Virus record (IMG/VR): IMGVR_UViG_3300031999_000001
Location: 126,001-190,000 of that record
From: a virus
Length of the DNA stretch: 64,000 bases
Reading direction: 5' to 3' (one strand)
The position numbers were made by a program, and so were the translations under genes. Below are positions 9,177 through 64,000 of this stretch, piece after piece. Below the pieces are notes generated by a model, which saw only the letters and a list, made by a program, of their open reading frames with translations, did not search any database and was not told the origin of the DNA. The stretch's first letter is position 1, and each line of letters starts with the position of its first letter.

Positions 9177-11672
9177 TTAAACTGTTTCCACATTTTCATC
9201 AGTAAATTTTATACCACGTTGAGTTAATATTTTCTTTGCTTCTTCTTTAGACATTCCACCCATAACACCAGCCATAGCTCCGGGCATTCTTACAGTTTTC
9301 TTTGCAATTTGTATTTGATGCCATGTTGCTGGGTCACGTTGTTTTAATTCACTTTCTTTTGACTCACCAAGTTCATTTTCTTTTTTTTCTGGTTCATCTG
9401 TTGACATTTTCTTTGCAAATTCTGCTGGAGAACCCATATCTTTATCTGGATTACTTAAATCAGCTTCTTCATTGCCTTCAACTTCATCACCAACATTTTT
9501 TGGTTTATAACCAAGAAGCATATCTGTCATTTCTTTATCATCTTGTTTTTCAAAACTTTCTGGTGGAAAATCTTTTGCTAATTGTCTATCATTAAAACAA
9601 CCTGAAGGATTCATTGGGTCAGTACTACCTGCACCATATTTTTCAACATCAGCTTCCATTTTTTCAAGACGATCATAATAATTAGGGATTTCAGTCAGGT
9701 GATCCATTGTTATTTCTATTGCAATCATTGGGTTGTCAGTATGTTCCAATTCAACTTTCATGCCTTTTAATATTTGTTCTGGGTCGAATTCCAATGGTGA
9801 TTTTTCATCACCTAATCCACCTTGAAGCATTTCACCCGTTTCTTCTTTATCTTGTGCAAGTTGTGCAACTTCATCACCTTGTGGTTCTAATGACATACCA
9901 TCATCAGGTTTTTCTTCAGTATCTGCTGGTGGTTCATTATCTGTTTGATGTGCTATTTGATCATCTGGATTTGTGATCTCTGATTTATTATCTTCATCTG
10001 ACATTTTTTCTTCTTCATTAAAATCAAATTTTGTATCATAAGGTAACGGATGTTTATCTCCAGATTTTTCCAAATCTTGACCAATATCATGTTTAGCAAC
10101 TTTTTTTGCTCCCCATCCTTTCGGAGCAGCAGGTAAATTTGCAATATCTTCATCTCCATATACTTCTTCTTCATTCATTGTTAGTTCATCTATTTTTGAT
10201 AAATCATATTGCAAACCAATATAACCAATACTTGGATTCCATGACATTATATAACCATCTTTACGATATGTTTTATCAGCAGTTCCATGATTTTCTTCTT
10301 GTGAACCTTCATGTTCTCCGGGGTAATGCCATTGCTTCAAATATTCTAATGCAGCATCTTCACCTTCTCTATCAAGTCTTTCAAGTGCATCAAACGCTTC
10401 ATCACCTTGTAAAAATACAACATTTTCATATTTATCATGATCTGTTGATTCATTAGCACTTATTTTAACTTTTTTTATTCTTATTTTCTTTTTCTTTGGA
10501 TAATGTGTTTCTGGTTTAAATTCCTTACCAATAATATCTGGATAATCATTTGTTTTATTCGTATTTTCTAAAAACGGTTCAGCTTCTTTTGGAAATACTC
10601 TTCTTTTCTCAGGTGTTACGGGTTTTTCACCGATAAGTATATTAATTTCTCCCATCAACTCATTTATTGTTGGTGCATAATCAGGATTTCCTTTTCTTGT
10701 GATTATATTATCATATGCCTGCCAGATTATTTTTTTCTTTTTTTCATTTATTTTAGGAACGGGTTCATCATCAACTTCTTTAGTATCATCAGTTGTTATT
10801 TGTGGAACTGTTATGGGTTGTTGCTGTGTTGCTTGTTTAAAACGTGCCAATTCCTGATTTATGATATCATCTTCTTCTTTATCCCATTCATTCAAATCAG
10901 CAATAACACTTTTGCCCGTAATTCTTTCAACCTCTGCTTTTAATTCTTGACTTGTCGGTACATAATTAGAATTTGTATTTTTTGTAATTAAATTATCATA
11001 TGCTGTATTAATAATCTGATAAGCCTTTGGTTTTGTAACACGTTGATTATCAAATTCATCCATTTCATTAATATATTTTTCAAGTTCTTCTGCACTTACC
11101 CTTACATCTGGATTTGTTGGTTTTTCATCAGCATATGCTTTACCTGTTTGCATATTATCCCTACCACCACCAAATGGATATGAATCAATTTTTTGTATTG
11201 CTTCTTCATAAAGACTATCAACAGGTTCTTCTTCTTCAATATCAATATATTCGTCAATAATATCAAACAATTCATTATTATGCTGTGCATTAAATTGTTT
11301 TAATGCGTTTTCATCCATTTCAACACTATTTTCACTATTTGCATCATCAAATGTGAAACTCATCATTATAACATTATCTATTTTATAAACACCTTCTTGA
11401 TCTTGTTCGCTTGAAATTGTTTTAAACGTAAATGTTATATTATTTCCATTGTTGTCAACACATAATAATTCAATAAAATTTTCATTATCTTTTGTTTGTG
11501 TATTACTGTGTTTTACTTTAAGATTACCACTTTTAAGTTCAGTAAATGCAACTTCAAGTACACTTTGGGGATTATAATTTTGTCCAAATGCTTCATTTAA
11601 TTTAATTTTATTAACATTTTGAAACATTTCCAAAAATCTTTCCTTACTTCCTATTTGCTTATATATTTTCAT
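9177..11672 (-). CDS. Large probable internal head protein with capsid-targeting-like tag
   Basis: An 831-residue acidic protein. Residues 1-27 (MKIYKQIGSKERFLEMF... KLNE) resemble the N-termini of the next upstream genes and end in LNE before Ala28, matching the T4 prohead protease rule [LI]xE. Two copies of a roughly 38-residue unit occur at about 217-254 and 313-350, sharing AYDNhITxxxNxxYxPTxxEL. A region with QWHYPGEHEG and YIMSWNPSIGYIGLQYDL lies near 455-500. The C-terminal half is rich in Asp, Glu and Lys. The gene is last in a five-gene operon ending at a terminator. Function is unknown; a core or ejected head protein is inferred from the tag. Confidence 0.7.
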   Translation of the reverse strand: MKIYKQIGSKERFLEMFQNVNKIKLNEAFGQNYNPQSVLEVAFTELKSGNLKVKHSNTQTKDNENFIELLCVDNNGNNITFTFKTISSEQDQEGVYKIDNVIMMSFTFDDANSENSVEMDENALKQFNAQHNNELFDIIDEYIDIEEEEPVDSLYEEAIQKIDSYPFGGGRDNMQTGKAYADEKPTNPDVRVSAEELEKYINEMDEFDNQRVTKPKAYQIINTAYDNLITKNTNSNYVPTSQELKAEVERITGKSVIADLNEWDKEEDDIINQELARFKQATQQQPITVPQITTDDTKEVDDEPVPKINEKKKKIIWQAYDNIITRKGNPDYAPTINELMGEINILIGEKPVTPEKRRVFPKEAEPFLENTNKTNDYPDIIGKEFKPETHYPKKKKIRIKKVKISANESTDHDKYENVVFLQGDEAFDALERLDREGEDAALEYLKQWHYPGEHEGSQEENHGTADKTYRKDGYIMSWNPSIGYIGLQYDLSKIDELTMNEEEVYGDEDIANLPAAPKGWGAKKVAKHDIGQDLEKSGDKHPLPYDTKFDFNEEEKMSDEDNKSEITNPDDQIAHQTDNEPPADTEEKPDDGMSLEPQGDEVAQLAQDKEETGEMLQGGLGDEKSPLEFDPEQILKGMKVELEHTDNPMIAIEITMDHLTEIPNYYDRLEKMEADVEKYGAGSTDPMNPSGCFNDRQLAKDFPPESFEKQDDKEMTDMLLGYKPKNVGDEVEGNEEADLSNPDKDMGSPAEFAKKMSTDEPEKKENELGESKESELKQRDPATWHQIQIAKKTVRMPGAMAGVMGGMSKEEAKKILTQRGIKFTDENVETV

Positions 11673-11684
11673 ATCTATTTATTT

Positions 11685-12131
11685 TTATTCAAAAATTATT
11701 GGATTCGTCTTACCGAATTCTCTTAAAAAAACACCAGCAAGTGCATTTGCTTCATTTTCATGTTCACTGCCAGTATTGTTTGAATTCGATGTTAATTTAC
11801 CCTCTTTATATTGCTTGTGATGTATTAATTCATGTGCTAATGTTCTTAATATGTCTGCTAAATTTCTATTTACTGCAACCACTCTTAATTCATTTGTTTC
11901 TGGTGTATATTTACCAAATGATTTCATATTTTCAGCTTCTTTATCATCATATGAAATTTTTATATCTGGCATTTTATCACCTAAATTAAGCTGTTTATCG
12001 GCATATTCAACAAATTTGTTAATAACCTCATTTTTCTTTTCAACAGGAAGTACCTGTTCATTAAGATTATTAACTTTTTTCATCATTTCAAAAAGCCTTT
12101 CTTTTGAACCATATGAATAAAATATTTTCAT
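11685..12131 (-). CDS. Zinc metallopeptidase with capsid-targeting-like tag
   Basis: A 148-residue protein. The N-terminal tag MKIFYSYGSKERLFEMMKKV continues to LNE at 23-25. The remaining domain is a small zincin: HELIH at 100-104 and the probable third-ligand region EHENEANA (123-130), as in IrrE/ImmA- or SprT-like peptidases, where HExxH His residues and a downstream Glu bind zinc. The gene is 13 nt upstream of the 831-residue gene. If the tag works as in T4, the peptidase is packaged inside the capsid and could act during maturation or after injection. It is not the usual serine-type prohead protease. Confidence 0.78.
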   Translation of the reverse strand: MKIFYSYGSKERLFEMMKKVNNLNEQVLPVEKKNEVINKFVEYADKQLNLGDKMPDIKISYDDKEAENMKSFGKYTPETNELRVVAVNRNLADILRTLAHELIHHKQYKEGKLTSNSNNTGSEHENEANALAGVFLREFGKTNPIIFE

Positions 12132-12133
12132 AA

Positions 12134-12688
12134 TTAACTTTCTGGTTCTCTACCCCTTAAATAAGGTGCTTCACTATCGTTTCCTGATTGATTTTTTGGT
12201 GTTTCTTGATTCCAAATTTCTTTTGCTTTATTATAAAAAGATTTTTCATCGCCAAAATTTTCACCAATTACTGGAAATGCACCCATTTTTTCAACAAGAT
12301 CAAAATCTTCAAGATGTTGAAGTTCTTCTGAACTCAACATTCCATCATAATCAGTTAAATCGCCATAATTATAAGCAATAGCATCTTTATAACCGGGTTT
12401 ACCTGTCACTACATTATAATTAATCTGTAATCTTTCATATAATGCGTGCCAATCAATTGAATTAAAATTACCAATACCTTGTTTATATTGTGGTCCGTCA
12501 TCACGTTCTGGTTCATCTTGTGGGTCAAAAGCATCAGGTTGATACTCTGTTCCCATTGGTTCACCTGCATCGTTTTTTACGGTATTCCAACCTTCATTCA
12601 ATTTTGGTTTAAATGTCGGGTCTATTTTTTGCATAACCTCAAAAAGTCTTTGTTTATTGTCTTTTTTAACCATTTTATACAATTTCAT
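12134..12688 (-). CDS. Probable internal head protein with capsid-targeting-like tag
   Basis: A 184-residue protein from the ATG at 12688 (MKLYKMVKKDNKQRLFEVMQ), chosen over the ATG at 12706 because it aligns with the tags of the neighbouring genes and overlaps the upstream stop. The tag ends KLNE at residue 32 before Gly33. The rest is acidic and polar, with NYNVVTGKPGYKDAIAYNYG in the middle and no recognised family. It is translationally coupled to the 241-residue gene. An internal or core head role is inferred. Confidence 0.65.
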   Translation of the reverse strand: MKLYKMVKKDNKQRLFEVMQKIDPTFKPKLNEGWNTVKNDAGEPMGTEYQPDAFDPQDEPERDDGPQYKQGIGNFNSIDWHALYERLQINYNVVTGKPGYKDAIAYNYGDLTDYDGMLSSEELQHLEDFDLVEKMGAFPVIGENFGDEKSFYNKAKEIWNQETPKNQSGNDSEAPYLRGREPES

Positions 12689-13400
12689 TAAAACTATCTT
12701 GGACATCTATTTTTGATTTTTGCGGTAAATCATCAAAATCAGCAACAAACGTACCATCAGGTAATTTGTTTATGCCCTTTTCCATTTCTTTATTTCTTTT
12801 TTCATTAAACCAATTTCCTGACCAAAAATCATTTAAATTAAAATAATATGGATAAGAAACATTAGTTTTGCTCATAAGTTTTTCAGAATTGGTTGGTTCA
12901 CGAACTTCTTCAACATCAGCATTTAATGTATCTAATTTTGCATTTAATCCCTGAACAGTACTATCCAAACTTTCTAATTTATCATGAATACTTTTCATGG
13001 CTTCGATATTATGTTTAATAATATCATTTTGAATATCATCAACTTGTTGTTCTGGCTCTGCTGATGGCATTGGTGCACCCATACCCATAGGGTCGGTTGC
13101 TGTCATATCTACAGGTGCTCCATTTGTTTTTGTATCACCAGTTTTATCAAATGCTGGTATAGGAGCATCCATACCAATAGGTTGATCATTCGAAGGTGCT
13201 GGGGGCACTTCACCGCCACCCGGTTTTTCAGCATCTTCTTGATCACCAGCTTCATTAGTTAACGGAGGAACATCATCATATTCCTCGCCATCATTTACTA
13301 ATGGGCGATATTTGGGAGATTCGTTGATTATATAATCAACACGATGTTTAATCTTTCTTAAATGTTCTTTAGAAAGATTATTTTTCTTATCATTTTTCAT
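12675..13400 (-). CDS. Probable head core/scaffold protein with tag
   Basis: A 241-residue protein. The N-terminus MKNDKKNNLSKEHLRKIKHR continues to INE at 25-27 before Ser28, a diverged form of the operon's shared tag. A Pro/Gly/Asp-rich linker (about 45-120) follows, then a predicted coiled coil near 125-165 with leucine and isoleucine heptads, then an aromatic C-terminal segment (SYPYYFNLNDFW). Disorder plus coiled coil would suit a prohead core or scaffold protein, but no family is recognised. Confidence 0.6.
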   Translation of the reverse strand: MKNDKKNNLSKEHLRKIKHRVDYIINESPKYRPLVNDGEEYDDVPPLTNEAGDQEDAEKPGGGEVPPAPSNDQPIGMDAPIPAFDKTGDTKTNGAPVDMTATDPMGMGAPMPSAEPEQQVDDIQNDIIKHNIEAMKSIHDKLESLDSTVQGLNAKLDTLNADVEEVREPTNSEKLMSKTNVSYPYYFNLNDFWSGNWFNEKRNKEMEKGINKLPDGTFVADFDDLPQKSKIDVQDSFNEIV

Positions 13401-13714: not shown

Positions 13715-14350
13715 TTATTTTGTCAGAATGACAACCATATATCTTTTAAGATACGAAAAATTTGGAAAGATTTTATATTGATTAAGATACATCTGCCCAT
13801 CCATATCATTTATATAAACAGCAGAACGTATAGAAATTTCTTCTTTTATTTCATCAATATTGAATTTAAAAAGGGAATACATATTTAAATTTACACCAAT
13901 AATTTTATTTTCCGATAATACATAAATCATTTCATTTTTAAAATTATATGTAACATCAATTTGTTTGGGAATAACATCCATTAATCCTTGTATATCGGCA
14001 ATTTGAAAAAAAACTGGGTCTAAATTAACATATAAATATTTTGGTTGAAAATAAAATTGCGGTGCTAAATTTACAAAACTTTCAACACCTTTAACATGTG
14101 AAGATTTACTTTCTTCAAAATTAAATTCCCAATACAATTCATTAGTTACAATTTTCTTATGAAGAATATCTGCATGTTGTATTAATTCATTATTTGAATT
14201 ACATGCTTTCATGAATGACCATCCAACATATAATGTTGGCAATGTTTTGTCGAGTTTTCGATATTCTGTTAATTCATTAATATAATTAACATACTCAACT
14301 TTTGTGTGATTTACCAGTTCCTTTTCATAAATAATGTTAGCAATTTTCAT
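13715..14350 (-). CDS. Unknown protein
   Basis: A 211-residue protein without a recognised family. It mixes aromatic-rich beta segments (NELYWEFNFEE, PQFYFQPKYLYVNLDPVFF) with helical stretches and has no transmembrane segment or signal peptide. Its start overlaps the end of the 14337-14606 gene, so the two are coupled. It lies between the head operon and the glycan island. Confidence 0.6.
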   Translation of the reverse strand: MKIANIIYEKELVNHTKVEYVNYINELTEYRKLDKTLPTLYVGWSFMKACNSNNELIQHADILHKKIVTNELYWEFNFEESKSSHVKGVESFVNLAPQFYFQPKYLYVNLDPVFFQIADIQGLMDVIPKQIDVTYNFKNEMIYVLSENKIIGVNLNMYSLFKFNIDEIKEEISIRSAVYINDMDGQMYLNQYKIFPNFSYLKRYMVVILTK

Positions 14351-14606
14351 ATTGTGCTTTATAGTTATTCACATTTTCTCCAAATACTTTAATAATGGTT
14401 TTCAAGTCTTCAACTGAATCTGGACTAAAATAAAATGCTGCACCCATTAAAAAAATATTATGGTCACTAAAATAATTCACCAAGCATGGAAATTTAAACC
14501 CATAAATATCCTTTTCTGTTATTTCAAGTACGTAATGCTCAATATCCACATTATATTTGAATCCTAATTCAGTTAATTCCTCTTTTGTTGGTTTATATTT
14601 TTTCAT
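14337..14606 (-). CDS. Unknown small protein
   Basis: An 89-residue protein from ATG 14606 (MKKYKPTKEELTELGFKYNV). An upstream TTG would add nine residues but would run through the motif at 14613-14623. It has a helical N-terminus followed by beta segments (HYVLEITEKDIYGF) and no known domain. It overlaps the next gene by 14 nt. Confidence 0.55.
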   Translation of the reverse strand: MKKYKPTKEELTELGFKYNVDIEHYVLEITEKDIYGFKFPCLVNYFSDHNIFLMGAAFYFSPDSVEDLKTIIKVFGENVNNYKAQYENC

Positions 14607-14612
14607 TATTAA

Positions 14613-14623
14613 ACATAAATACT
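14613..14623 (-). promoter_or_regulatory. AGTATTTATGT motif before small gene
   Basis: The minus strand reads AGTATTTATGT seven bases upstream of the preferred ATG at 14606. It is a dispersed-motif copy with unusually tight spacing, so its activity is less certain. Confidence 0.35.
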
Positions 14624-14653
14624 TCATCCACAACTTTTAACACCATATTCATA

Positions 14654-14941
14654 TTAAAGTTCCTCAATCCTTTTACTTTTATCGTCAATCAATAAATCAT
14701 ATGCTGGTTTTTGTCTCATAATTACATCATGAAACTTACAACCCCAATCAATTAATTGTTGTGCGGTTAACTCTGTCCAATTTATGCCAGTATTTTGTCC
14801 TCTGGCTGACCAATAAATTATTATATTACCCTCATCGTAAAGTTTATTAATTTTTGCAATATTCTTTGGAATTGGCTTTGCATTATCGTAACCCCCAACA
14901 GTCGTACATATTGTACCGTCTATGTCACAGTATATCAACAT
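14654..14941 (-). CDS. Small HAD-family phosphatase-like protein
   Basis: A 95-residue protein with the HAD nucleophile motif YCDIDGTIC (4-12) and a later IIYWSARG (about 46-53, motif II Ser). Its C-terminal DLLIDDKS (81-88) is the acidic motif. The compact form lacks a cap domain, like small HAD proteins found near capsule and LPS loci. It lies 12 nt downstream of a PfkB sugar kinase at the end of the glycan island, so a phosphosugar substrate is likely; the exact substrate cannot be read. Confidence 0.75.
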   Translation of the reverse strand: MLIYCDIDGTICTTVGGYDNAKPIPKNIAKINKLYDEGNIIIYWSARGQNTGINWTELTAQQLIDWGCKFHDVIMRQKPAYDLLIDDKSKRIEEL

Positions 14942-14953
14942 ATTCTAATTGTT

Positions 14954-15733
14954 TTACTTAATTTTTTTTAAATCAACAATAACCACACCTCTTTGAGTTA
15001 CCACCCAAGAAGCACATTTATTTGCAAATCGTATTGCTTCACAAATATCATTATTTTCCATGAATTTTGCAACAAGTGCTGCAAGAAAAGTATCACCAGC
15101 ACCACTTAAATCCCTGACATTATGTTCATTTTCAATTGAAAATTTTTCAATTTTAATTTCACCATCATCATTATAATTTAACATTGCACCATCTTTACCT
15201 AATGTTATAATAATATCATTTGGAAATTCATATGTTAAATATTCTTTATTTTCATTATATTCTTTTTCATTAATTTTTATATATTTGATATTAAATGCCC
15301 ATTTTCCAATTATTTTTTTTGTATCCATAAATATTAAAGGATGATTTTCTGCAATATATATAATATCATCATGACTTAAAAATCCTTTATTATAATCGGA
15401 AATTATAATTGCAACATATTGATTAAAATCAATTCCTTTCAATTCTTTTGCCCTTAATGGTTTAATTTTATCATTTTCGTCAACCCTAAGTAACATTTGG
15501 TTTGAAACTTCATCAACATATCTCATTTTTACTGGTCTGATATCATTTGTAAAAATATCACAATGAACACCTAATGCTTTGAGATTTTCATAAACATTTA
15601 TTGCCATTCCACCATTACCAGTTGTTCTTAAGGGAAGAAAAATTGGTACGGGTGCTTCGGGACTTAATTTATCACATATTCCATATCTGAACACATCCTC
15701 ACAACTATCGCCAATTACTAATACTTTTTTCAT
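14954..15733 (-). CDS. PfkB-family sugar kinase, RfaE/HldE kinase-domain-like
   Basis: A 259-residue ribokinase-fold protein. The N-terminus VIGDSCEDVFRYG and the segment KLSPEAPVPIF resemble the kinase domain of HldE/RfaE, and the C-terminal LSGAGDTFLAAL (about 210-221) is the PfkB signature with the catalytic Asp. HldE phosphorylates D-glycero-D-manno-heptose 7-phosphate; the adenylyltransferase domain is missing here. With the adjacent HAD phosphatase it could build or modify an activated sugar. It overlaps the next gene upstream by 4 nt. Confidence 0.78.
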   Translation of the reverse strand: MKKVLVIGDSCEDVFRYGICDKLSPEAPVPIFLPLRTTGNGGMAINVYENLKALGVHCDIFTNDIRPVKMRYVDEVSNQMLLRVDENDKIKPLRAKELKGIDFNQYVAIIISDYNKGFLSHDDIIYIAENHPLIFMDTKKIIGKWAFNIKYIKINEKEYNENKEYLTYEFPNDIIITLGKDGAMLNYNDDGEIKIEKFSIENEHNVRDLSGAGDTFLAALVAKFMENNDICEAIRFANKCASWVVTQRGVVIVDLKKIK

Positions 15734-17208
15734 TTCTTATTATATTTCTTTAATGCTATTAATTGTTTTTTAATGTTTGATATTTCATAATCGGTTTCAA
15801 GCATTTTATTTAATGGTTTTTCCATACTAAATTCATTGATTTTTACTGATTTTTTATATACTTTTCTTATTGTTCTTAATAAATCACATTTATGTAAACC
15901 TTTAACACCAATTTGTGTAATAACATCAGAATTATCCCAATTTAACATTATTTTTTCGGCAATTTTACACCAAAACAATGTTGTAATACCATTCCAATAA
16001 TAATTAACATAACCATTCACTTCTTCTTTTTCATCAACACTTAAAAACCAATCCAATAAAGATTTATTTGAATTTAATTCATGCCCAATTATTGATGTTC
16101 TAATGATTTTGGTGTTCTTAAAATTATCAACAATTATTTTAGATATCTTAGCTTTACTTTTACCATAATCATCATTAGCATCACGTTCATCGGTTTTTTT
16201 ATATTTTTCTGGATATGGAATGTCTCCAGAAAATTCACAATCTGTTGAAGGATGAAGAACTTTTTTTCCGATAGATTCTAAAAATATTGGTAAATCAACA
16301 TTAATTTTATCATAATCTTCTGATTTGTATTTTTTTTGCGGTATTGCACCAATACAATTTATAATAAAATCAACATTACAATTAATTATAAAATCTTTAA
16401 ATTCATTTGAATCCCATCTAAAATCACAGACATATACGATATATCTATTATTAAAATATTTATATACCATATTACCAAGCATTCCATTATGTCCCAATAT
16501 CAGTAATTTTATACCTTCTTTTAATTTAAGTAATTCACGTTTTATTTTTGACATGTTTCTTATAATTCCATTCAGATTTTTACTTGTTACTGAATCATTA
16601 TGTCTTCTTTTATAAGATAGAAATTCTGGTACGCCATCAAATGGTATGTTATAAATTGTTGATTTTATCATCCAATAATAATCTTCTGAAAATTTTAAAT
16701 GTTCAGGAAATGGAAAATTTTTATAAACATATTTCGGAATGAAAATACCCGTAAATCCAATTCGTGATTTACACCAAATCGTTTCCTCAAATTTTTCAGA
16801 ACTCATTTTTTTTGTTTCTCTCTTTTTTGTAATATTATTATCTTTATCAATTATCCATGCATTATTATATAAAACAGATTTTGGAAATTTTTGCGCATAT
16901 TCTATTTTTATTTTTAATAAATCTTTATCAAAATAATCATCTGCAGGACACCAACACCAATAATCTCCATTACTTTCATCAAAACTTTTATTTATGATAA
17001 CACCAACATTATCTTGTTTATCTAATTTAAAAATTTTAACCCTTTTATCATTTTCATATTCTTTAATTATATTTAATGAATCATCGGTGCTGCCATCATC
17101 ATAAATGAGATATTCAAAATCCGTATAACTTTGATTTAAAACACTTTCTATTGCTTGCGCAATATATGAAGCATTGTTGTAATTAGATGTAAAAACCGAT
17201 ATTTTCAT
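15730..17208 (-). CDS. Fusion of GT2 glycosyltransferase and RmlD-like SDR reductase
   Basis: A 492-residue two-domain protein. Residues 1 to about 230 are a GT2 glycosyltransferase with VFTSNYNNASYI, the YDDGSTDDS motif (36-44) and PADDYFD (88-94) as the metal-binding site. Residues about 233-492 are an extended SDR with the nucleotide-binding GHNGMLG (239-245), NCIGAIPQ, HPSTDCEFSG and YGKSK (YxxxK, 348-352), like RmlD-type dehydrorhamnose reductases and the WbvR-type reductase of UDP-L-QuiNAc synthesis. Fusion would couple making a donor sugar to transferring one. No frameshift or internal start was seen that would argue for two genes. Confidence 0.8.
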   Translation of the reverse strand: MKISVFTSNYNNASYIAQAIESVLNQSYTDFEYLIYDDGSTDDSLNIIKEYENDKRVKIFKLDKQDNVGVIINKSFDESNGDYWCWCPADDYFDKDLLKIKIEYAQKFPKSVLYNNAWIIDKDNNITKKRETKKMSSEKFEETIWCKSRIGFTGIFIPKYVYKNFPFPEHLKFSEDYYWMIKSTIYNIPFDGVPEFLSYKRRHNDSVTSKNLNGIIRNMSKIKRELLKLKEGIKLLILGHNGMLGNMVYKYFNNRYIVYVCDFRWDSNEFKDFIINCNVDFIINCIGAIPQKKYKSEDYDKINVDLPIFLESIGKKVLHPSTDCEFSGDIPYPEKYKKTDERDANDDYGKSKAKISKIIVDNFKNTKIIRTSIIGHELNSNKSLLDWFLSVDEKEEVNGYVNYYWNGITTLFWCKIAEKIMLNWDNSDVITQIGVKGLHKCDLLRTIRKVYKKSVKINEFSMEKPLNKMLETDYEISNIKKQLIALKKYNKK

Positions 17209-17210
17209 AT

Positions 17211-17879
17211 TTATTTATTTATTAATTTTAAATTATATTTACTTACATTAAAATCAGACCTACTACCTAATAATTTGGTCATATGAATATTATCACCATG
17301 TATTGTCAAAAGCACATTTAAATTATCTATTTTTATTCCTTTAATGAAAATTCCAATACTACCATGTGATTTTGAATATGGTATACATTTATATTCATCT
17401 TTTTTTTCCATAACTGAAATAAAACCACTTGTACCTGTTGCATTCCATGTTTTTTTTCCTTTTGTTATTATATTAATCATATCCATTTTTTTTATATCAT
17501 AATAAAATGGAAATTCTGTTTCAATTATAGATTTATGAAGATTTTCAACAAAATCATTACCCAAACAATTATCACTATCAATTCTTGTTGTTAAAACATA
17601 TTCTTCATCAATAAGTTCCAGTAATTTCGGTAATATTTCTTTAAGAATTTTATTTGCTCCTGATGATTCAAGCAATAATTGATATTCATTACTAATTTTA
17701 CCCACAGGTTCATATCCCCATAAAGTAACGAACTTAAAATTTTTATTAGTTTGCACTTCAATTGATGACCTTAATGTATTATTTAAAATATTAATTCTAT
17801 TATTAAGCCAGACTTCATCTTTTGATTGTGGAAGCCATTTAATATTAACTCTACTAACAATTAAATGTGTAAATTTCAT
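17211..17879 (-). CDS. Putative rhamnosyltransferase-like glycosyltransferase
   Basis: A 222-residue protein beginning FTHLIVSRVNIKW, with WLNNRINILNNTLRSS and the DxD-like TTRIDSDNCLGNDFV near 106-120. This resembles the bacterial family annotated as putative rhamnosyl transferases. It would transfer a sugar from a nucleotide donor. It ends 2 nt before the fusion gene and starts 3 nt after the 4,6-dehydratase stop, inside a tightly packed operon. Confidence 0.7.
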   Translation of the reverse strand: MKFTHLIVSRVNIKWLPQSKDEVWLNNRINILNNTLRSSIEVQTNKNFKFVTLWGYEPVGKISNEYQLLLESSGANKILKEILPKLLELIDEEYVLTTRIDSDNCLGNDFVENLHKSIIETEFPFYYDIKKMDMINIITKGKKTWNATGTSGFISVMEKKDEYKCIPYSKSHGSIGIFIKGIKIDNLNVLLTIHGDNIHMTKLLGSRSDFNVSKYNLKLINK

Positions 17880-17882
17880 ATT

Positions 17883-18884
17883 TTACTTTATTAAAAAACC
17901 ACCCTCAAATAATAATTCACGTAAATAATTTTTATCCTTTATATTATCTGCCGATGAAAATGTTTTAAAATTTACTTTTTTATGATTATTTAAGTACGTA
18001 TATTCTTTATTTATTTTTATTGATGGTAATATAATATAATAATTTTCATAAAATTTATATGAATTCACTGATTCGTGTTCAGATATTAATATTTCATGTA
18101 CTTTCTCACCCTCTCTAATGCCAATCTCTTCAATTTTTGTATCTGAATTTCCATAATATTCAATCAACACCTTTGCTAAATCACTAATATAAAATGATGG
18201 CATATTCATTACAAAAGTTTCACCACCAATGCTATGTTCAGCAGCTTCAAATAATAAAAAAATTGCTTGAGATAATGTAAGAAAAAATCTGGTCATTGTC
18301 TTATCAGTAATTGTTACTTTATTTTGTGTTTTAATTTGATTAATAAAATGTGGAACAACACTACCATTTGAACCCAAAACATTACCACCCCTAATACAAA
18401 CAAAATCAGTATTATTTGTTAAATTATTTGCCTGAATTGTAAGTTTTTCACCAACCGATTTTGTCATTCCATATAAATTCGTTGGTGAAACCGCTTTATC
18501 TGTTGAAATATCAACAAACTTTTTAACTCCATACTTAATAGCAGAATTAATTAAATTTATTGTTCCAATAATATTAGTTTTTATTGCTTCTTGTGGTTGA
18601 TTTTCACAAACAGGAACATGTTTTAATGCTGCGAGATGAAAAACATAATTAATATTTTTATGATTAAATAATCTATCAACAGCATCCGCATCACGAACAT
18701 CACCAATAATATATTCAATTTTATTATTATTAAATTTTCTCAGCATGTTTACTTGTGCAAGTTCACCACGAGAATATATAATTATTTTTTTTGGGTCTTT
18801 CTCCAAAAGTTGTAATGTTAATTCATTTCCCCATGAACCCGAACCACCATCAATTAAAATTATTTTGTTTTCAAACATAATCAT
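17883..18884 (-). CDS. UDP-GlcNAc 4,6-dehydratase (PseB/FnlA/CapE-like)
   Basis: A 333-residue extended SDR. The nucleotide-binding loop near the N-terminus is GGSGSWGNELT; downstream are LAALKHVPVCENQPQEAI, DISTDKAVSPTNLYGMTKS and an MTRFFLT segment, all typical of the UDP-N-acetylglucosamine 4,6-dehydratase and 5-epimerase group. It would convert UDP-GlcNAc to a 4-keto-6-deoxy sugar, the first step to L-FucNAc, L-QuiNAc or pseudaminic-type sugars. The start overlaps the deacetylase stop (ATGA). A reductase domain and a 2-epimerase in the same island suggest the L-aminosugar branch. Confidence 0.87.
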   Translation of the reverse strand: MIMFENKIILIDGGSGSWGNELTLQLLEKDPKKIIIYSRGELAQVNMLRKFNNNKIEYIIGDVRDADAVDRLFNHKNINYVFHLAALKHVPVCENQPQEAIKTNIIGTINLINSAIKYGVKKFVDISTDKAVSPTNLYGMTKSVGEKLTIQANNLTNNTDFVCIRGGNVLGSNGSVVPHFINQIKTQNKVTITDKTMTRFFLTLSQAIFLLFEAAEHSIGGETFVMNMPSFYISDLAKVLIEYYGNSDTKIEEIGIREGEKVHEILISEHESVNSYKFYENYYIILPSIKINKEYTYLNNHKKVNFKTFSSADNIKDKNYLRELLFEGGFLIK

Positions 18885-19519
18885 TTATTAATTTTTATCA
18901 TTCTTATTATTTTAAATGACTCAGCATATTCCAAATTAGATGAAAAACCACGAATATTTGAATAACTCATTAATAGTTCTTTTGGTCTAAATTTTCTTAC
19001 TTGTGATTTATGTAATTTATATGCATTTATTTTATTTTCAATATCAATTTCTTCAAAATAATTTGGTTGAAATTCATTTTCACCCCAAAGTAAATATTGT
19101 TCAACCTCATAAACAAACACATTTGGTACAAAATAATTTAAATCATGTGGTCTTAATGCAACAATACAAGCATCATAAACTTCTTTATGATCTTGATTGT
19201 ATGAAAAATTTGGAATAAAAATTTCATTTGGTTTTAATTCATTAATAATATCAGTAATTTCATTAATTATCATTTCTTTTTTATAATTATTTACTTGATT
19301 AGTACCTATTCGATATTCAAAATTTAAAAATTTCGATACTGCATCAACTTCTTTAATTCTTTCATCTCTTCTCACAACATGAAATAAATCAATACCTAAA
19401 TAATAAACAAAAGAACAATTATTATTTTTTCTATTATTTAAAATTCCAGCACAACCCAATACTTCATCATCACAATGTGGTGATATTATTAATGTTTTAT
19501 ATGTCTTTTTCATATTCAA
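18881..19519 (-). CDS. PIG-L/LmbE-family N-deacetylase
   Basis: A 212-residue protein with LIISPHCDDEVLGCAGIL near the N-terminus; PHxDDE is the zinc-binding and catalytic signature of the GlcNAc-PI/LmbE deacetylase family. A second motif, FSYNQDHKEVYDA, provides the usual HxxxH-type residues. The enzyme would remove an acetyl group from an N-acetylated sugar. The next gene upstream is a formyltransferase, so deacetylation followed by N-formylation is a plausible pair. It overlaps both neighbours. Confidence 0.85.
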   Translation of the reverse strand: MNMKKTYKTLIISPHCDDEVLGCAGILNNRKNNNCSFVYYLGIDLFHVVRRDERIKEVDAVSKFLNFEYRIGTNQVNNYKKEMIINEITDIINELKPNEIFIPNFSYNQDHKEVYDACIVALRPHDLNYFVPNVFVYEVEQYLLWGENEFQPNYFEEIDIENKINAYKLHKSQVRKFRPKELLMSYSNIRGFSSNLEYAESFKIIRMIKINK

Positions 19520-20162
19520 TAATTTTTAATATAATTTTTCCAGTTTTACAATTAATATAACATTCTGGATATGGTTTTTGTAACGAACGTACTTTATTAT
19601 AAAAATATTCAGCATCGTTATTTAAAAAATCTTCTGGTTTTATTTCAGAATTATTTGGCTTTAAACGTTTGTATGTTGTAGCTTCTTCCTTATTTTGTTT
19701 TATCCATAATATTGAATCATTCTTATAATTTTCAATAAAATCTTTTGTTCCTATAATACCAAAATTTTCTATTTTTTTTAATATTATATCTAAATATCCG
19801 TTTAATTCAAAATCAACCTGATAATATATATCACCATCATCTAATCCCTTTTCCATTTTAAATATTGTAACTGCTGAAAATTTTTCCCCTGCAATTATTT
19901 GATTTTGTATTGGTGTTCCGCCTCTATATTTGGGTAATTTTGATGGATGTAAACATAAACAAATATAAGAATCAACAATTTTCTGAGACACCATCCAACT
20001 CCAACCATAAAAAAATATAACATCTGGATTTATTATATTAATAAAATCAATTGTACATAATTTTTTATTTGTAATAAGTATATATTCATCTTCCAATGAA
20101 GATATTTCCTTAAAAATATTAATTGCCCAATCTCTATATGCAAAAAATAAAAATCTTTTCAT
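19497..20162 (-). CDS. Formyltransferase-family protein, probable sugar N-formyltransferase
   Basis: A 221-residue protein with CLHPSKLPKYRGGTPIQNQI and KGLDDGDIY, the formyl-folate binding and catalytic region of the methionyl-tRNA formyltransferase fold (usually HxSxLPxYRG). It is shorter than Fmt (about 310 residues) and lacks its tRNA-binding domain, as do sugar N-formyltransferases. It would formylate an amino sugar using N10-formyl-THF, perhaps the product of the neighbouring deacetylase. It overlaps that gene by 23 nt. Confidence 0.8.
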   Translation of the reverse strand: MKRFLFFAYRDWAINIFKEISSLEDEYILITNKKLCTIDFINIINPDVIFFYGWSWMVSQKIVDSYICLCLHPSKLPKYRGGTPIQNQIIAGEKFSAVTIFKMEKGLDDGDIYYQVDFELNGYLDIILKKIENFGIIGTKDFIENYKNDSILWIKQNKEEATTYKRLKPNNSEIKPEDFLNNDAEYFYNKVRSLQKPYPECYINCKTGKIILKIIEYEKDI

Positions 20163-20920
20163 ATTTTTTTATGTTTTTCACCTTCCTGAAAATGATACAC
20201 AATAGAATCATTTGAATTTATATGTTTTACACCAATTGAATTTAGTCTAACAAAAAATTCAGTATCACCAGTTCTTGATATTATATTATATTTTCCATTA
20301 TGTAAATTTCCTTCTGGATAATATCCAACCTTTTCAATAATATCTTTATATAGCATTATTGGCATAAAAAGATTTCCAATTGAAATACTATCATTTTTTA
20401 TTTCATTTACTTTTTTTAGAAACGCTTCTTCGTTAAAATTTTTTATTGTTTGTCCAAAATCATAATGTTCACAAACAGATAAATTAATTGGATTGGTAAA
20501 TCTATGATGAGGCTGTATTATTTTTGAGGAAACCACAACTTCACGTGTTAATCTCTTTTTTAAATTAACTAACCAATCTGGTGAAAATGCATTATCGCTA
20601 TTAATCAACATTATTATTGGATTATTAGACATTCTAATACCATAATTATATCCAGCATATACTCTACTTATATATTCTGGATATGCAAATCCCATATTAA
20701 ATAATTCTTGTTCTGTACGCTTAATATTATTATTTATAAAATGTGGATAATTTTTTTCTTTTAGAAGTTTTAATACATCATCAGTTGCATCATTAGCAAC
20801 AAAATAAAATTCTGCTTCATCGCAATTAAGTTCAGGTGTGTGTTTTATGAGATTATTATATACAAACTCGGCATATTCAACAGATTGATATATTAATGAT
20901 ATGATTGATATTTTTTCCAT
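20159..20920 (-). CDS. GT2-like glycosyltransferase
   Basis: A 253-residue GT-A fold protein starting MEKISIISLIYQSVEYAEFV. The nucleotide-sugar site FVANDATDD and the metal-site equivalent MLINSDNAFSPDWL (about 133-146) fit GT2 enzymes. The C-terminal SRTGDTEFFVRL and YHFQEG give a probable acceptor/base region. It overlaps the formyltransferase gene by 4 nt. Substrate unknown. Confidence 0.75.
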   Translation of the reverse strand: MEKISIISLIYQSVEYAEFVYNNLIKHTPELNCDEAEFYFVANDATDDVLKLLKEKNYPHFINNNIKRTEQELFNMGFAYPEYISRVYAGYNYGIRMSNNPIIMLINSDNAFSPDWLVNLKKRLTREVVVSSKIIQPHHRFTNPINLSVCEHYDFGQTIKNFNEEAFLKKVNEIKNDSISIGNLFMPIMLYKDIIEKVGYYPEGNLHNGKYNIISRTGDTEFFVRLNSIGVKHINSNDSIVYHFQEGEKHKKI

Positions 20921-20924
20921 AATT

Positions 20925-21608
20925 TTATTTCTTTGGTATTAACATTATTGAACATCTTGGCACATAATGAACTTTAGTATTATATAAAATTTTATTATTA
21001 ATTTTATCATTTTTTTTCATTAATTGACATATATACATATCTGGTAGATCAGTCATATATTCAACATCATATTTATCAAGAATATTATTATAATAATATA
21101 ATTGTTCCGAATATGTTTTTTTATTAAAATCAAACCAGTCATGAATAAAAATACATTTACTATGATTAATTAAATTTAAAAAATTTTCATTTATGAATTT
21201 TGCCATTTTGGTAGAATGTTCACAATCAATCAAGAACATATCAAATTCGTTATTTTTAATAAACTTTTGAATTACATCATATTGTTCATAAAGATTAATT
21301 TTTTCATATTTTATATCATAAAATATTGGTTGTAATGCAAAACTTGTGCGTTTAATTCCTAAACTATCAATAAATTTACTTGAACTTCCAGCACCGAATT
21401 CAACAACATTTGTTATATTATTTTCAAATATAAACCTTTTTAATATAAATAAATCAAATGGATTTATGCCGAAATTTTGTCCGATTAATTTTACAATATC
21501 ATCTAATCTATATTCATCAATAAAATTAAAAATCTTATTGAAAATATTCTGATAATTATATTTATAATTATTTGAATTTGATATTATTATTCCCCATTCA
21601 TCTCCCAT
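20925..21608 (-). CDS. Class I SAM-dependent methyltransferase-like protein
   Basis: A 227-residue protein. Motif I is VVEFGAGSSSKFID (about 69-82) and an acidic strand FDMFLIDCEHS follows near 120, in the arrangement of class I methyltransferases such as the Methyltransf_24 type. An HDWFDFNKK segment follows. It probably methylates a glycan, or uses the fold otherwise. Four nucleotides separate it from the GT2 gene downstream. Confidence 0.6.
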   Translation of the reverse strand: MGDEWGIIISNSNNYKYNYQNIFNKIFNFIDEYRLDDIVKLIGQNFGINPFDLFILKRFIFENNITNVVEFGAGSSSKFIDSLGIKRTSFALQPIFYDIKYEKINLYEQYDVIQKFIKNNEFDMFLIDCEHSTKMAKFINENFLNLINHSKCIFIHDWFDFNKKTYSEQLYYYNNILDKYDVEYMTDLPDMYICQLMKKNDKINNKILYNTKVHYVPRCSIMLIPKK

Positions 21609-21609
21609 T

Positions 21610-22443
21610 TTACATATTATTTATATAATTTTCCCATAAAATTTTGCCCGTATATCTGTCCCATTGTTTTTCGAAAATAACATCTCTTGGATTATCACCC
21701 GCTTCAAAATCTTTTTCAATATTTAAAATTTTTCTTTGTTTAAGATTACATGCCATTCCTTCATATTCAATAATATAATAGGGTCTTAAAAGACTGACAG
21801 ATAATTGAAAATCAGCACAATTCATCAATTCTACCATTTTTTGTTGATTTATTAATACGTGTTGTTGACCATATCCATTAAAATCACCCTTATTTGGATA
21901 CCAAACAATAATCCAATAAATGCTCGGATTCTCATTTGCATATTTTTGAACATGTTGAAATCCTTTCATTGGATGTGTTGTTCCACACCAAAAACCAATT
22001 TCTTTATTTAATGGAACACCATATTTTAATTTTAAATTATATTTTTCTTCATCTGAATACGATTTAAATAAATCAGTATTAACACAAATAGGTAATATAT
22101 CAACTTTACCATACGGTTCATAAAATGGTACTGCAAATTTTGATGATACAACTCTTCTGTTGGCTGCTTTTGCAGTTTGATATGTTACATTAATAACACC
22201 ATCCCAATGATTAACATTAAAAACTTCTTTCATTTCAGGATATAATTCCCAACATAAAGCAATTACATTTGCTGGCATTGCATTTAACGGTCCTGCAGTT
22301 GAATATCTTAAAACAGTATCATTTTCATTATATTGTAAAGGAAGTTTAAATGATGTGTTTTCAAAAACTTTTTCAAACCACACCCAAAATGTTTCTTCTC
22401 CATATGCACATTTTAATCCATGTATTGGTGATAAATATATCAT
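21610..22443 (-). CDS. GT-B-type glycosyltransferase-like protein
   Basis: A 277-residue protein with VDILPICVNTDLF, followed by KEIGFWCGTTHPMKGFQHV and YWIIVWYPNKG, resembling the start of the C-terminal nucleotide-sugar domain of GT4-like enzymes. It is shorter than a full GT-B enzyme (350-400). The start overlaps the upstream methyltransferase stop by 4 nt. Confidence 0.62.
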   Translation of the reverse strand: MIYLSPIHGLKCAYGEETFWVWFEKVFENTSFKLPLQYNENDTVLRYSTAGPLNAMPANVIALCWELYPEMKEVFNVNHWDGVINVTYQTAKAANRRVVSSKFAVPFYEPYGKVDILPICVNTDLFKSYSDEEKYNLKLKYGVPLNKEIGFWCGTTHPMKGFQHVQKYANENPSIYWIIVWYPNKGDFNGYGQQHVLINQQKMVELMNCADFQLSVSLLRPYYIIEYEGMACNLKQRKILNIEKDFEAGDNPRDVIFEKQWDRYTGKILWENYINNM

Positions 22444-22979
22444 TTTTTTAAAAATTTTAATGTTCTTCTATCATTATCCCTACAAACAATTGTAATTCCA
22501 GCAACTCCAATTGGAAGTGTGATTAAATTTAATTCTGGATGATTTTCTTTAATCCAATCATGCATTTTATATGAATCACTACAATACATTTGTTCTAAAT
22601 ACTTTTCTTCAAATGGGTCTGTATCATGAAGAAGAATAATACCATGAATATTTAAACATTTTAACGAATTTTCAAAATCTCTTTTCACTTGTTCAAAACG
22701 ATGATCAGCATCAATAAAAATAATATCAGCATATCCAATAAAATCTTTAAAAAACTCATCAGTTGTTTTTAAATGAAACTCAAAATTTCTAAAAAGTAAT
22801 TTATCATCAATATCAACACCAATACACCTTTTAGAATATTTAGTAATTTCCTTAATGTTTAATCCTTGTAACACACCCAATTCCAAATAAGTTTCACATC
22901 CGGTTAATTCAACAATTTTAGATATTAACGTTGGATGTAATTCAAATTTACTATAATTATATGCAAATCTGTTTATCAT
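22440..22979 (-). CDS. Class I methyltransferase-like protein
   Basis: A 179-residue protein with motif I YLELGVLQGLNIKEI (about 31-45), CIGVDIDDKLL as the acidic end of strand 2, and DIIFIDADHRFEQVKRDF, the pattern of Methyltransf_24/CmcI-like enzymes. HDTDPFEEKY may supply metal or catalytic residues. It lies in the glycan island and probably modifies a sugar hydroxyl. Confidence 0.7.
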   Translation of the reverse strand: MINRFAYNYSKFELHPTLISKIVELTGCETYLELGVLQGLNIKEITKYSKRCIGVDIDDKLLFRNFEFHLKTTDEFFKDFIGYADIIFIDADHRFEQVKRDFENSLKCLNIHGIILLHDTDPFEEKYLEQMYCSDSYKMHDWIKENHPELNLITLPIGVAGITIVCRDNDRRTLKFLKK

Positions 22980-23018
22980 ATTTTTCCAATTAATATATTA
23001 ATTAAACAATAATTTTTA

Positions 23019-23879
23019 TTAAGGATTAATATTTTTATTTTTTAATAAATTTCCTAACACATTGTTTGGTAAATTCGTTAAACCACCATTAGTTTCTTGT
23101 AAAAATTTTCCAGATAATGCACAACCACCATACCAATGAATGCCAATTGTATTTGTGGTAATTTTTGGTTTTGCTCCATTGTATATCTCCGTTTTATTTG
23201 CTGCACCCATTGAATAAACAGCATCATCACCAATATCTGCCACAGAAGAAATTTTATTAATTAATTGTAATGTTCGATAATTTTTATTCCACAACAATGA
23301 ACCAATTGTCTGATACATTTTTTTATTATATACTCTTTTTGCTTCTTCAATTAATATTTTATAAAAATCATTATTTCCTGCACTCATAAGAAATCCAATA
23401 GAATGTCCATGCGGTGAAATACAAACAAATGTTTCAATATTTTTATTATTTTCTATGTTCACCGTTAAGCAATTAATTGGTCTAAAATAAAGAATATCCA
23501 TATCAGACCATACTCCACCAATCGTTGATAAAATTTCAAGTCTTATAAAATCCGATTTATGTACTTCAGATACATCATTACTAAATCCATAATTATTAAA
23601 GTCAGTTGGAATCATTTCTATTGGCAAGTTTTTTAGTTCTTCTATGTAATCATCACACGAAAATTCTTGTTCTTGTTCTTTGGTATTCCAAGTAACAATA
23701 GTTTTTGATGGATATTTAGGATACCAAAACATAACTTTCCATTCTGGATTTTTTAACATAAATGAACGTATGGTCATAAATCTGAGATACGAAAATATTC
23801 CAGTACCCCAATAAATATGAAAAATTTTTGGAACTTTTAAATGCCATACATTATTTAATGAGTTAATATATTGTTCCAT
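23019..23879 (-). CDS. GT32-type glycosyltransferase (DXD sugar-binding)
   Basis: A 286-residue protein with IPKIFHIYWGTG near the N-terminus and SDFIRLEILSTIGGVWSDMD around 111-130, the DXD motif of the Gly_transf_sug/GT32 family; the C-terminal GIHWYGG is also typical. It shares architecture with the gene at 26391-27266, so the two are probable paralogs acting at different steps. Confidence 0.8.
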   Translation of the reverse strand: MEQYINSLNNVWHLKVPKIFHIYWGTGIFSYLRFMTIRSFMLKNPEWKVMFWYPKYPSKTIVTWNTKEQEQEFSCDDYIEELKNLPIEMIPTDFNNYGFSNDVSEVHKSDFIRLEILSTIGGVWSDMDILYFRPINCLTVNIENNKNIETFVCISPHGHSIGFLMSAGNNDFYKILIEEAKRVYNKKMYQTIGSLLWNKNYRTLQLINKISSVADIGDDAVYSMGAANKTEIYNGAKPKITTNTIGIHWYGGCALSGKFLQETNGGLTNLPNNVLGNLLKNKNINP

Positions 23880-23880
23880 T

Positions 23881-24534
23881 TTAATATATATATGTTAATT
23901 CCATATAATTAATTAAATTTTTATTTTTATACTCTATAATATATGGTAGTATTGCCATATTTAATGCGGTATATCCTTTATCAATTTTTGTTCGTACCAT
24001 TAAACCCGTCCATGATGATGGAGATTTAAGAAAATATTTAATAAATCCATTAACATTAATTAAATTATAATCATAAAATGGAATCCCCGCATATTGACAA
24101 TCATGATATAAAATCAAATCAAATTTATCATAAAGAGCATTAATTGATAGTGTTCTACATGCTGTAAATTGATCAACAAACAATAGATTTGGTTTTAATT
24201 CTGGAATAACTAAATTATGATAATAATTAAAAATTTCAAATTTTTTATCATCGGATAATTCTTTAAGATGTGTAAATATTTTAACTTCATTTAAGTCATG
24301 ATAAATTACATCAATATTTTTATATTTATTTCTAATGTGGTCAATCCATTCCTTATCACTTTCAACACCTAATAATTTGGTTTTATAATTAAGAAAAACG
24401 GGTGTTGAATTATCTCCGATTCCTAATTCAAGTACAAATGCTGGTGTATACAATTCCATTACCGCTTTTATTATTGGTTGATGTGTTGACCATTCATAAC
24501 CATTATTGATATTCATATTACTTTTATTTTCCAA
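23881..24534 (-). CDS. Methyltransferase-like protein
   Basis: A 217-residue protein with FVLELGIGDNSTPVFL (about 33-48), a class I methyltransferase motif I, then LLGVESDKEW and DQFTACRTLS. A DLILYHDCQYAG segment lies near 140. Sequence similarity to classical enzymes is partial, so activity is unproven. It overlaps the 2-epimerase start region by 11 nt and sits between a GT32 gene and the epimerase. Confidence 0.58.
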   Translation of the reverse strand: MENKSNMNINNGYEWSTHQPIIKAVMELYTPAFVLELGIGDNSTPVFLNYKTKLLGVESDKEWIDHIRNKYKNIDVIYHDLNEVKIFTHLKELSDDKKFEIFNYYHNLVIPELKPNLLFVDQFTACRTLSINALYDKFDLILYHDCQYAGIPFYDYNLINVNGFIKYFLKSPSSWTGLMVRTKIDKGYTALNMAILPYIIEYKNKNLINYMELTYIY

Positions 24535-26379: not shown

Positions 26380-26390
26380 TAAATATTTTT

Positions 26391-27841: not shown

Positions 27842-27859
27842 TATTTATAAAATAATTTT

Positions 27860-28444: not shown

Positions 28445-28483
28445 TAATATTATTTTAAAACACCTTTTATTTTATAATTTTAA

Positions 28484-29849: not shown

Positions 29850-29862
29850 TAATTTAATTATT

Positions 29863-63252: not shown

Positions 63253-63804
63253 TTAATTTCCTTTTGTTTCGTTTAAAAATGGAACAACATCCTCTTTTAC
63301 TGGCACACCAGTTACTCGTTTCCAATATGATTTAAATCCACCAATCGTTTTATTTGTAGTATCTGTTACATTATTAGCACTTTCAACTTCATAATATCTG
63401 TTTTTTTGACCACTAATATTATATTCAATAACATCACCACGGTCAATTTCTATTTGTTTTTCTTCCAGTTCTTTAAGATAAACACCAAATATAATATTTC
63501 CACTATCATCACGTGCAATACCACCCTGATATCCACCATAATTTTCCTGTTTACCATCTTCAACTGTAATCATTACACTAATTCTAATTGGTAACATGTA
63601 TTTTTTGTCTTTTGTTTTTGCCTGACCATATAAATTATGTGATTTTGTTTCAATTAAATTGATTTTATGCAAAATAATTTCTTGAGCATTATCTGTTTGT
63701 AAAAAATTTCTACCGTACATCACATCTAATTCAAAAGAATTTTCTGTCATAAATAAACCCATTCTGTTATTTTCAAGGTCAATTATTTGTTTTTTCTTTT
63801 TCAT
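63253..63804 (-). CDS. Probable structural protein, neck-like possibility
   Basis: A 183-residue protein. The middle contains INLIETKSHNLYGQAKTKDK followed by MLPIRISVMITVEDG, and a later GDVIEYNISGQKNRYYEVES. The LYG-type turn followed by pro-strand segments recalls phage neck/head-completion proteins, but the similarity is loose. It overlaps the upstream gene's stop by 1 nt (TAATG). Confidence 0.55.
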   Translation of the reverse strand: MKKKKQIIDLENNRMGLFMTENSFELDVMYGRNFLQTDNAQEIILHKINLIETKSHNLYGQAKTKDKKYMLPIRISVMITVEDGKQENYGGYQGGIARDDSGNIIFGVYLKELEEKQIEIDRGDVIEYNISGQKNRYYEVESANNVTDTTNKTIGGFKSYWKRVTGVPVKEDVVPFLNETKGN

Positions 63805-64000
63805 TAATCAATTATTTTAAAGCCATCTGGTTCAAGTAAATTTACATCATTGGTAAATATTTGATATTGTTTGTCAATTACCCAATCTGGAACATTTGAT
63901 CTATCAATACCATTTTCAATATCTTTTTTTATTCTTTCTTTTGCAATTTCAGGACTAACACTAAATATTTTAGCAAAACCTTCAAATGGCATATCAACAT
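63804..64000 (-). CDS. Unknown protein, possibly truncated by the window end
   Basis: The frame is open from the window end to the stop at 63804. MPFEGFAKIFSVSPEIAKER begins at 63992, but the frame continues upstream (a Val-Asp pair precedes), so the start may lie outside. The visible 62 residues are helical then basic (KKDIENGIDRSNVPDWVIDK). It is coupled to the next gene. No family recognised. Confidence 0.5.
   Translation of the reverse strand, partial: VDMPFEGFAKIFSVSPEIAKERIKKDIENGIDRSNVPDWVIDKQYQIFTNDVNLLEPDGFKIID

What the first reader, a model, noticed from the sequence alone, without database searches (positions are those of the whole stretch)
9177..13400. Shared N-terminal tag ending in [LI]NE on four consecutive head-operon proteins
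The four proteins begin with related MK(I/L)(Y/F)...K(E/Q)RLFEMM-type segments and reach LNE-Ala, LNE-Gln, LNE-Gly and INE-Ser at residues 25-32. In T4, capsid-targeting sequences begin MKTYQEF and are cleaved by gp21 after [LI]xE. The otherwise unrelated bodies of these proteins and their common operon argue for a packaging tag. This would be a capsid-targeting code in a Bacteroidota phage and a way to predict its internal proteins.
Basis: partly seen in the sequence, partly recalled or inferred. Interest (0 to 1): 0.85.

Follow-up and report, generated by a model that had tools for sequence, protein, structure and literature searches.

The report
Cleavable capsid-packaging tag on phage proteins
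Several unrelated proteins of this large T4-like phage start with the same short helical tag ending at a cut site for the phage's head-maturation protease, which is best read as an address label that gets proteins packed inside the virus head, and it allows cargo proteins to be predicted in many uncultured giant phages.

Summary
The tag is real and conserved. Three of the four proteins (831, 148 and 190 aa) share a homologous N-terminal helix ([KP][EQ]RLFEMM-like) that ends in LNE about 10 residues later. The fourth (241 aa) has a different helix but an invariant Glu in an [LIV]xE site at residue 27. An unbiased scan of IMG/VR for the helix alone found 40 contigs: 39 hits lie in the first ~31 residues and 37 are followed by [LIVM]xE. 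A tag profile finds 115 non-redundant proteins in 27 unrelated body families (metalloproteases, a kinase, an ADP-ribosyltransferase, DUF5661, GP88, cupin). All six tag-bearing contigs of at least 178 kb found by that scan encode a T4 gp21-type protease and a gp23-type capsid protein. Those capsid proteins carry the same site (QLFENQLS[HY]M[IL]NE|S) where gp23 is matured. Distant relatives of the tagged metalloprotease instead carry short T4-style tags ending in [LIF]xE. The best reading is a T4-type capsid-targeting sequence (works like a CTS; a new variant). Packaging and cleavage remain unproven.

The parts
9177..11672 (-). Tagged protein 1, 831 aa, acidic, DUF5661 domain at residues 632-673
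   Evidence: ORF; PF18905 E=2.2e-10; tag HMM 2.2e-9
11592..11672 (-). Tag of protein 1: MKIYKQIGSKERFLEMFQNVNKIKLNE, predicted cut after E27
11685..12131 (-). Tagged protein 2, 148 aa, HExxH zincin-type metalloprotease
   Evidence: ORF; phrog_87 E=1.2e-7; PF06114 over cut-off; tag HMM 5.6e-11; AlphaFold2 pLDDT about 56 for residues 1-30 against about 82-93 over most of the body (lower, 67, in one block)
12057..12131 (-). Tag of protein 2: MKIFYSYGSKERLFEMMKKVNNLNE, predicted cut after E25
   Evidence: E25 invariant in 19 orthologues
12134..12673 (-). Tagged protein 3, about 179 aa from the start supported by orthologues (ORF caller gives 190 aa from 12706); unknown body
   Evidence: tag HMM 5.8e-11
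12593..12673 (-). Tag of protein 3: MVKKDNKQRLFEVMQKIDPTFKPKLNE, predicted cut after LNE
12675..13400 (-). Protein 4, 241 aa, coiled coil plus conserved YPYYFNLNDFW C-terminal region; tag-like N-terminus with non-homologous helix
   Evidence: not hit by tag HMMs
13320..13400 (-). N-terminal propeptide-like segment of protein 4: MKNDKKNNLSKEHLRKIKHRVDYIINE, predicted cut after E27
   Evidence: E27 invariant in 18 orthologues, site variants INE/VSE/IGE/ISE/VNE/LKE
63804..64000 (-). C-terminal end of a kinase-like protein (G000 189804-190652) whose N-terminus, outside the window, carries the tag helix MKKDNKQRLFEMMERLNPEF without [LI]xE
   Evidence: phrog_505 1.7e-16; tag HMM 3.4e-8

Best explanation
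The segment is a capsid-targeting propeptide that works like the T4 CTS. An N-terminal amphipathic helix docks late-made proteins onto the prohead core/scaffold (inferred). They are enclosed as the gp23-type shell assembles (inferred). The phage's gp21-type serine protease then cuts after [LI]xE at residues 25-27 and frees the mature bodies inside the head (site shown by conservation; cutting inferred). The bodies, among them a zinc metalloprotease and a DUF5661 protein here, and a kinase, ADP-ribosyltransferase, cupin and GP88 protein in this or related phages, would be delivered with the DNA (inferred).
For: The helix is strictly N-terminal and shared by 27 unrelated body families. [LIVM]xE follows in 106 of 115 non-redundant tag proteins, with varied middle residue and mostly LNE. 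In the helix-only scan it follows in 37 of 40 against about 45% in controls (binomial 5.5e-10). Glu is invariant in the families of proteins 2 and 4. The gp21 protease is present in all six tag-bearing contigs of 178-371 kb from that scan and in the 299-kb relative, and matches T4 gp21 5JBL. [IL]NE|S sits at the gp23 maturation position in all nine capsid proteins of the clade aligned (a tenth, from G002). An [LIV]xE near residue 30 occurs in every protease of the clade (G002). Published T4 gp21 specificity is L/I-x-E, and the CTS is modular and portable (PMC9026906, PMC3012670). Homologues of protein 2 in other T4-like phages have short CTS-like tags. AlphaFold2 shows a helix then a low-confidence linker at the cut site, ahead of the folded domain.
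Against: No virion proteomics or cleavage data exist, and no cultured phage record matched the tag. Nine of 115 tag proteins lack [LI]xE, including all three kinase-family members and an ADP-ribosyltransferase. The cluster is not in the head gene block. The source contig itself lacks the protease, apparently because it ends just upstream of the scaffold gene.
Confidence: 0.82

Rival explanations
1. The helix is a docking tag for another assembly (tail, baseplate, a phage-made compartment or the replication machinery), and the following LNE is only part of the docking motif and is not cut.
For: The cluster neighbours replication genes. Nine of 115 tag proteins lack [LI]xE. The helix core is better conserved than the cut site in the kinase and ADP-ribosyltransferase subclass.
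Against: Conservation falls on L/I and E with a free middle residue, which is the gp21 rule rather than a generic helix cap. The same motif lies at the capsid-protein maturation site and in the protease itself. Protein 2 homologues swap the helix for a short T4-style CTS that ends the same way.
Confidence: 0.1
2. Two-part code: helix alone targets to the head, and [LI]xE only adds release. Proteins with helix but no site stay uncleaved and tethered to the core, or are packaged whole.
For: The kinase family lacks the site in 3 of 3 members. In T4 an Asp at position 10 of the IPIII CTS blocks processing but still allows targeting (PMC9026906).
Against: Only a handful of site-less proteins; they could have lost packaging instead. 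It is a refinement of the best explanation rather than an alternative to it.
Confidence: 0.35
3. Chance or simple paralogy: the four N-termini look alike because the genes are duplicates or because of composition bias.
For: Low-GC genome (26.8%) with K/E/N-rich proteins.
Against: Bodies are unrelated and form 27 separate families. The tag profile has no significant match in reversed ORFs (best E=0.65). The helix pattern does not occur in 517 control ORFs. GTDB genome matches to the same DNA pattern are almost all incidental (1 of 24 looks like a tag).
Confidence: 0.02

Closest known systems
T4 capsid targeting sequence (CTS) of IPI/IPII/IPIII and Alt, cleaved by gp21
   Same: N-terminal propeptide on unrelated internal proteins; cut after L/I-x-E; protease and gp23-type shell homologous; cargo includes host-modifying enzymes
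   Different: 25-27 residues with a helical RLFEMM-like core instead of about 10 residues (MKTYQEF-type); no recognisable sequence similarity; wider cargo range; some helix-bearing proteins lack the cut site
phiKZ/SPN3US head-protein propeptides cut by gp175/gp245 (PMC5694885)
   Same: Giant phages; ejection proteins processed after a short motif ending in Glu by a gp21 relative
   Different: Propeptides there are mostly over 100 residues and are not described as a shared helix tag; different phage lineage
Phage P1 DarB capsid targeting signal (PMC9024508)
   Same: N-terminal 30 residues suffice to send a reporter to the capsid
   Different: No shared consensus among Dar proteins was found, and cleavage after [LI]xE is not established
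Short T4-style tags on homologues of protein 2 in cyanophage-like contigs and Synechococcus phage B23
   Same: Same enzyme body; N-terminus ends in [LIF]xE
   Different: Tag only 8-10 residues (MRFQELTE, MKFTELKE, MISFKDFIKE, MNYKQFLRE)
Tag-like N-termini in Flavobacterium phage immuto (NC_055915)
   Same: Phage with related gp23 and gp21; cluster of accessory proteins with repeated N-terminal motifs; includes a DUF5661 protein and a protein with a metalloprotease domain
   Different: Different motifs (MKKSQLRQIIKEAL; FDLKKFLVENKLT.NS+LLxE; MKKQILSEQFRRMQKLAGIITE)

Membership tests
T4-type capsid-targeting sequence | Located at the extreme N-terminus | tested here: met
   131 of 136 significant tag hits start at residue 20 or earlier; the other 5 are upstream-start artefacts or a gene fusion
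T4-type capsid-targeting sequence | Shared by proteins with unrelated mature bodies | tested here: met
   27 body families, BLAST clustering with tag removed
T4-type capsid-targeting sequence | Ends in a gp21 site [LI]xE | tested here: met
   All four window proteins; 106 of 115 tag proteins; invariant Glu in orthologues; exceptions listed
T4-type capsid-targeting sequence | Sequence like T4 MKTYQEF, about 10 residues | tested here: not met
   Compared by eye only: window tags are 25-27 residues with an RLFEMM-type core; therefore filed as 'works like', not as a sequence-family member
T4-type capsid-targeting sequence | Phage encodes a gp21-family prohead protease | tested here: met
   Absent from the source contig, which ends upstream of the scaffold gene; present in the 299-kb relative and in all six tag-bearing contigs of 178 kb or more from the pattern scan; 5JBL E=5.6e-21
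T4-type capsid-targeting sequence | Same protease site in the major capsid protein propeptide | tested here: met
   QLFENQLS[HY]M[IL]NE|S in all nine clade capsid proteins aligned; immuto has VSE, RM378 has none at that column
T4-type capsid-targeting sequence | Protein is packaged and the tag is removed | not testable with these tools
   Needs virion mass spectrometry
T4 gp21 / MEROPS S77 protease (relatives' protease) | Catalytic His and Ser motifs conserved | tested here: met
   DHP and G-I-SSRG invariant in alignment A2, aligned to the T4 active-site motifs of 5JBL

The most novel reading that the evidence does not exclude
A lineage of uncultured giant T4-like phages uses a portable two-part address: a docking helix that alone puts proteins into the head, plus an optional [LI]xE release site. 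At least 27 cargo families use it, so tethered and released cargo would be encoded separately.
Probability: 0.3. Interest if true: 0.85.

Novelty: new variant of a known kind. Interest (0 to 1): 0.7.

Why it matters
It gives a sequence rule for picking out the internal, probably injected, proteins of a whole group of uncultured giant phages in which almost all such genes are unannotated. The list already holds candidate take-over or counter-defence enzymes (metalloproteases, ADP-ribosyltransferase, kinase). It also shows that T4-style capsid targeting extends well beyond T4 with a different helix, so docking and cutting can be tested as separable functions.

Tried and rejected
Searched the source contig for gp21 (PF03420): none; explained by contig truncation. 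Tested whether protein 4 carries the same helix: not supported by any HMM. PDB sequence search and Foldseek of protein 2: no significant fold match (best Foldseek E=0.02; zincin-type entries such as selecase, PprI and Wss1 among the weak hits). AlphaFold of protein 4: low confidence (mean pLDDT 58). Short-tag tblastn against cultured phages: no match, though such short queries are insensitive. NCBIfam gave no informative names. [LI]xE counts in the scaffold (12 in 346 aa) were not used as evidence because the protein is Glu-rich. Paper searches for capsid targeting in Bacteroidota phages found nothing relevant.

Full report
What was checked. The window is part of a 200,057-base virus record. 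Their N-termini reach LNE-Ala, LNE-Gln, LNE-Gly and INE-Ser. With the start of protein 3 that its orthologues support, the glutamate is residue 27, 25, 27 and 27.

Is the tag more than chance? A degenerate DNA pattern for the helix only (K[EQ]RLFEMM, with no condition on what follows) was scanned over IMG/VR and over GTDB genomes. Of 40 viral matches, 39 lie within the first ~31 residues of an ORF, nearly all at residues 4-14, and 37 are followed by [LIVM]xE within 24 residues. Of 24 genome matches only one, in a Bacteroidota MAG, looks like a tag. In loci with tags, 72 non-redundant tag proteins had [LIV]xE in 94% of cases, against about 45% for N-terminal windows of 517 control ORFs, none of which contains the helix. 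By binomial test, 37 of 40 has p=5.5e-10, and counted by body family 24 of 27 has p=4e-6. A profile HMM of the tag found 21 significant hits among 5,205 ORFs of five genomes plus part of immuto, all N-terminal. The best E-value in reversed sequences was 0.65. In the wider locus set 136 ORFs were significant, 131 starting by residue 20; the rest were misplaced starts or a fusion.

Do the four share it? Models trained without the tested family still find it. Tags from other families find protein 2 (3.4e-7) and protein 3 (1.9e-14), and 25 members of the protein 1 family (the window's own member only at E=0.2). Tags of protein 1 find all 39 protein 2 members. Protein 4 is never found, so its helix is different. 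Its site is nonetheless under constraint: E27 is invariant in 18 orthologues while the preceding residue is N, S, G or K, and L/I/V precedes that. In protein 2, E25 is invariant in 19 orthologues.

Cargo. Clustering bodies with the tag removed gives 27 unrelated families among 115 non-redundant proteins. Identified bodies include zincin-type metalloproteases, DUF5661, GP88, a polynucleotide-kinase-like P-loop protein and an ADP-ribosyltransferase of the polyvalent-protein type, and a cupin. One relative (G014, 328 kb) has about 11 tag proteins scattered round its genome, three of them next to the head-neck genes. Enzymes of these kinds are expected among injected proteins: T4 Alt is a packaged ADP-ribosyltransferase, and metallopeptidases and ARTs recur in polyvalent proteins (PMC5512222).

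Protease and capsid. The source contig has no gp21 match, but it ends just upstream of the scaffold gene, where a cultured relative keeps terminase, portal and protease. The 299-kb relative and all six tag-bearing contigs of 178-371 kb from the pattern scan have a PF03420 protease; those six also have a PF07068 capsid protein, and the 299-kb relative has a capsid protein 83% identical to that of the source contig. The protease profile matches T4 gp21 5JBL at 5.6e-21 with the active-site motifs aligned. The capsid proteins of the clade all read QLFENQLS[HY]M[IL]NE|S at the position where gp23 is matured (the G002 protein), and the clade's proteases all have an [LIV]xE near residue 30 (G002). 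The published gp21 rule is cleavage after L/I-x-E; in T4 IPIII targeting residues and processing residues are separable (PMC9026906), and only the CTS is conserved among T-even internal proteins (PMC3012670).

An independent line. Distant homologues of protein 2 lack the long helix and instead start MRFQELTE, MKFTELKE, MNFKELKE, MISFKDFIKE or MKVKEIITE, and Synechococcus phage B23 has MNYKQFLRE. The enzyme is thus preceded by a gp21-style site in different phage lineages, with interchangeable targeting segments. AlphaFold2 of protein 2 shows a helix at 10-19, a linker below pLDDT 50 at 19-25 and a confident domain from about residue 30, as expected for a removable tag.

What does not fit. The cluster is not in the head operon; it borders sugar-nucleotide/glycosyltransferase-type genes and replication genes, in the same arrangement in several relatives. 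Nine of 115 tag proteins have no [LI]xE in range, including all three kinase-family members and one ADP-ribosyltransferase. They may be packaged without cleavage, as the T4 Asp-10 mutant suggests is possible, or may have lost packaging. The host is not known; Bacteroidota is plausible from the nearest cultured capsid relatives. Nothing here shows packaging or cleavage directly.

Verdict. It works like the T4 capsid-targeting sequence and belongs to the gp21/gp23 head-maturation kind, but it is not a sequence member of the T4 CTS. It is best called a new variant with a longer helical address and a broad cargo list.

Noticed in passing
G002:C1:295639-297588 (L075) and G017:C1:93738-95402 (L153, L154): In two relatives the gp21-like protease ORF (about 650 aa) is split by an intein-like insertion placed just after the catalytic-His motif (EADHPD|C...).
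   Followed up: partly
L028:3826-5568: Metalloprotease (protein 2) and DUF5661 protein (protein 1) are fused in one reading frame, leaving the second tag (KDDKKRLIEMFQKVNKITLDE) internal.
   Followed up: partly
L080 / NC_055915.1 95000-126000: Flavobacterium phage immuto has a cluster of accessory proteins with at least three other repeated N-terminal motifs (MKKSQLRQIIKEAL, FDLKKFLVENKLT.NS+LLxE, MKKQILSEQFRRMQKLAGIITE), candidates for parallel capsid tags.
   Followed up: partly
L009:1979-2683 (G000 191778-192482): A 234-aa protein near the neck genes starts MKTEINKQRLQEVMSIIDNEYRLIENYISE|A, a possible diverged tag outside the window.
   Followed up: partly
L009:5517-7307: A 596-aa ORF just downstream of the major capsid gene joins a Mom-like DNA modification domain to a homing-endonuclease domain.
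   Followed up: no
window 13715-33254: A roughly 20-kb run of genes in the same direction, several with starts resembling glycosyltransferase, methyltransferase or sugar-nucleotide enzymes, upstream of the tag cluster.
   Followed up: no
G013:C1:288909-314289: Three short ORFs match pieces of the gp23 family away from the main capsid gene; possibly remnants of a second shell protein.
   Followed up: no
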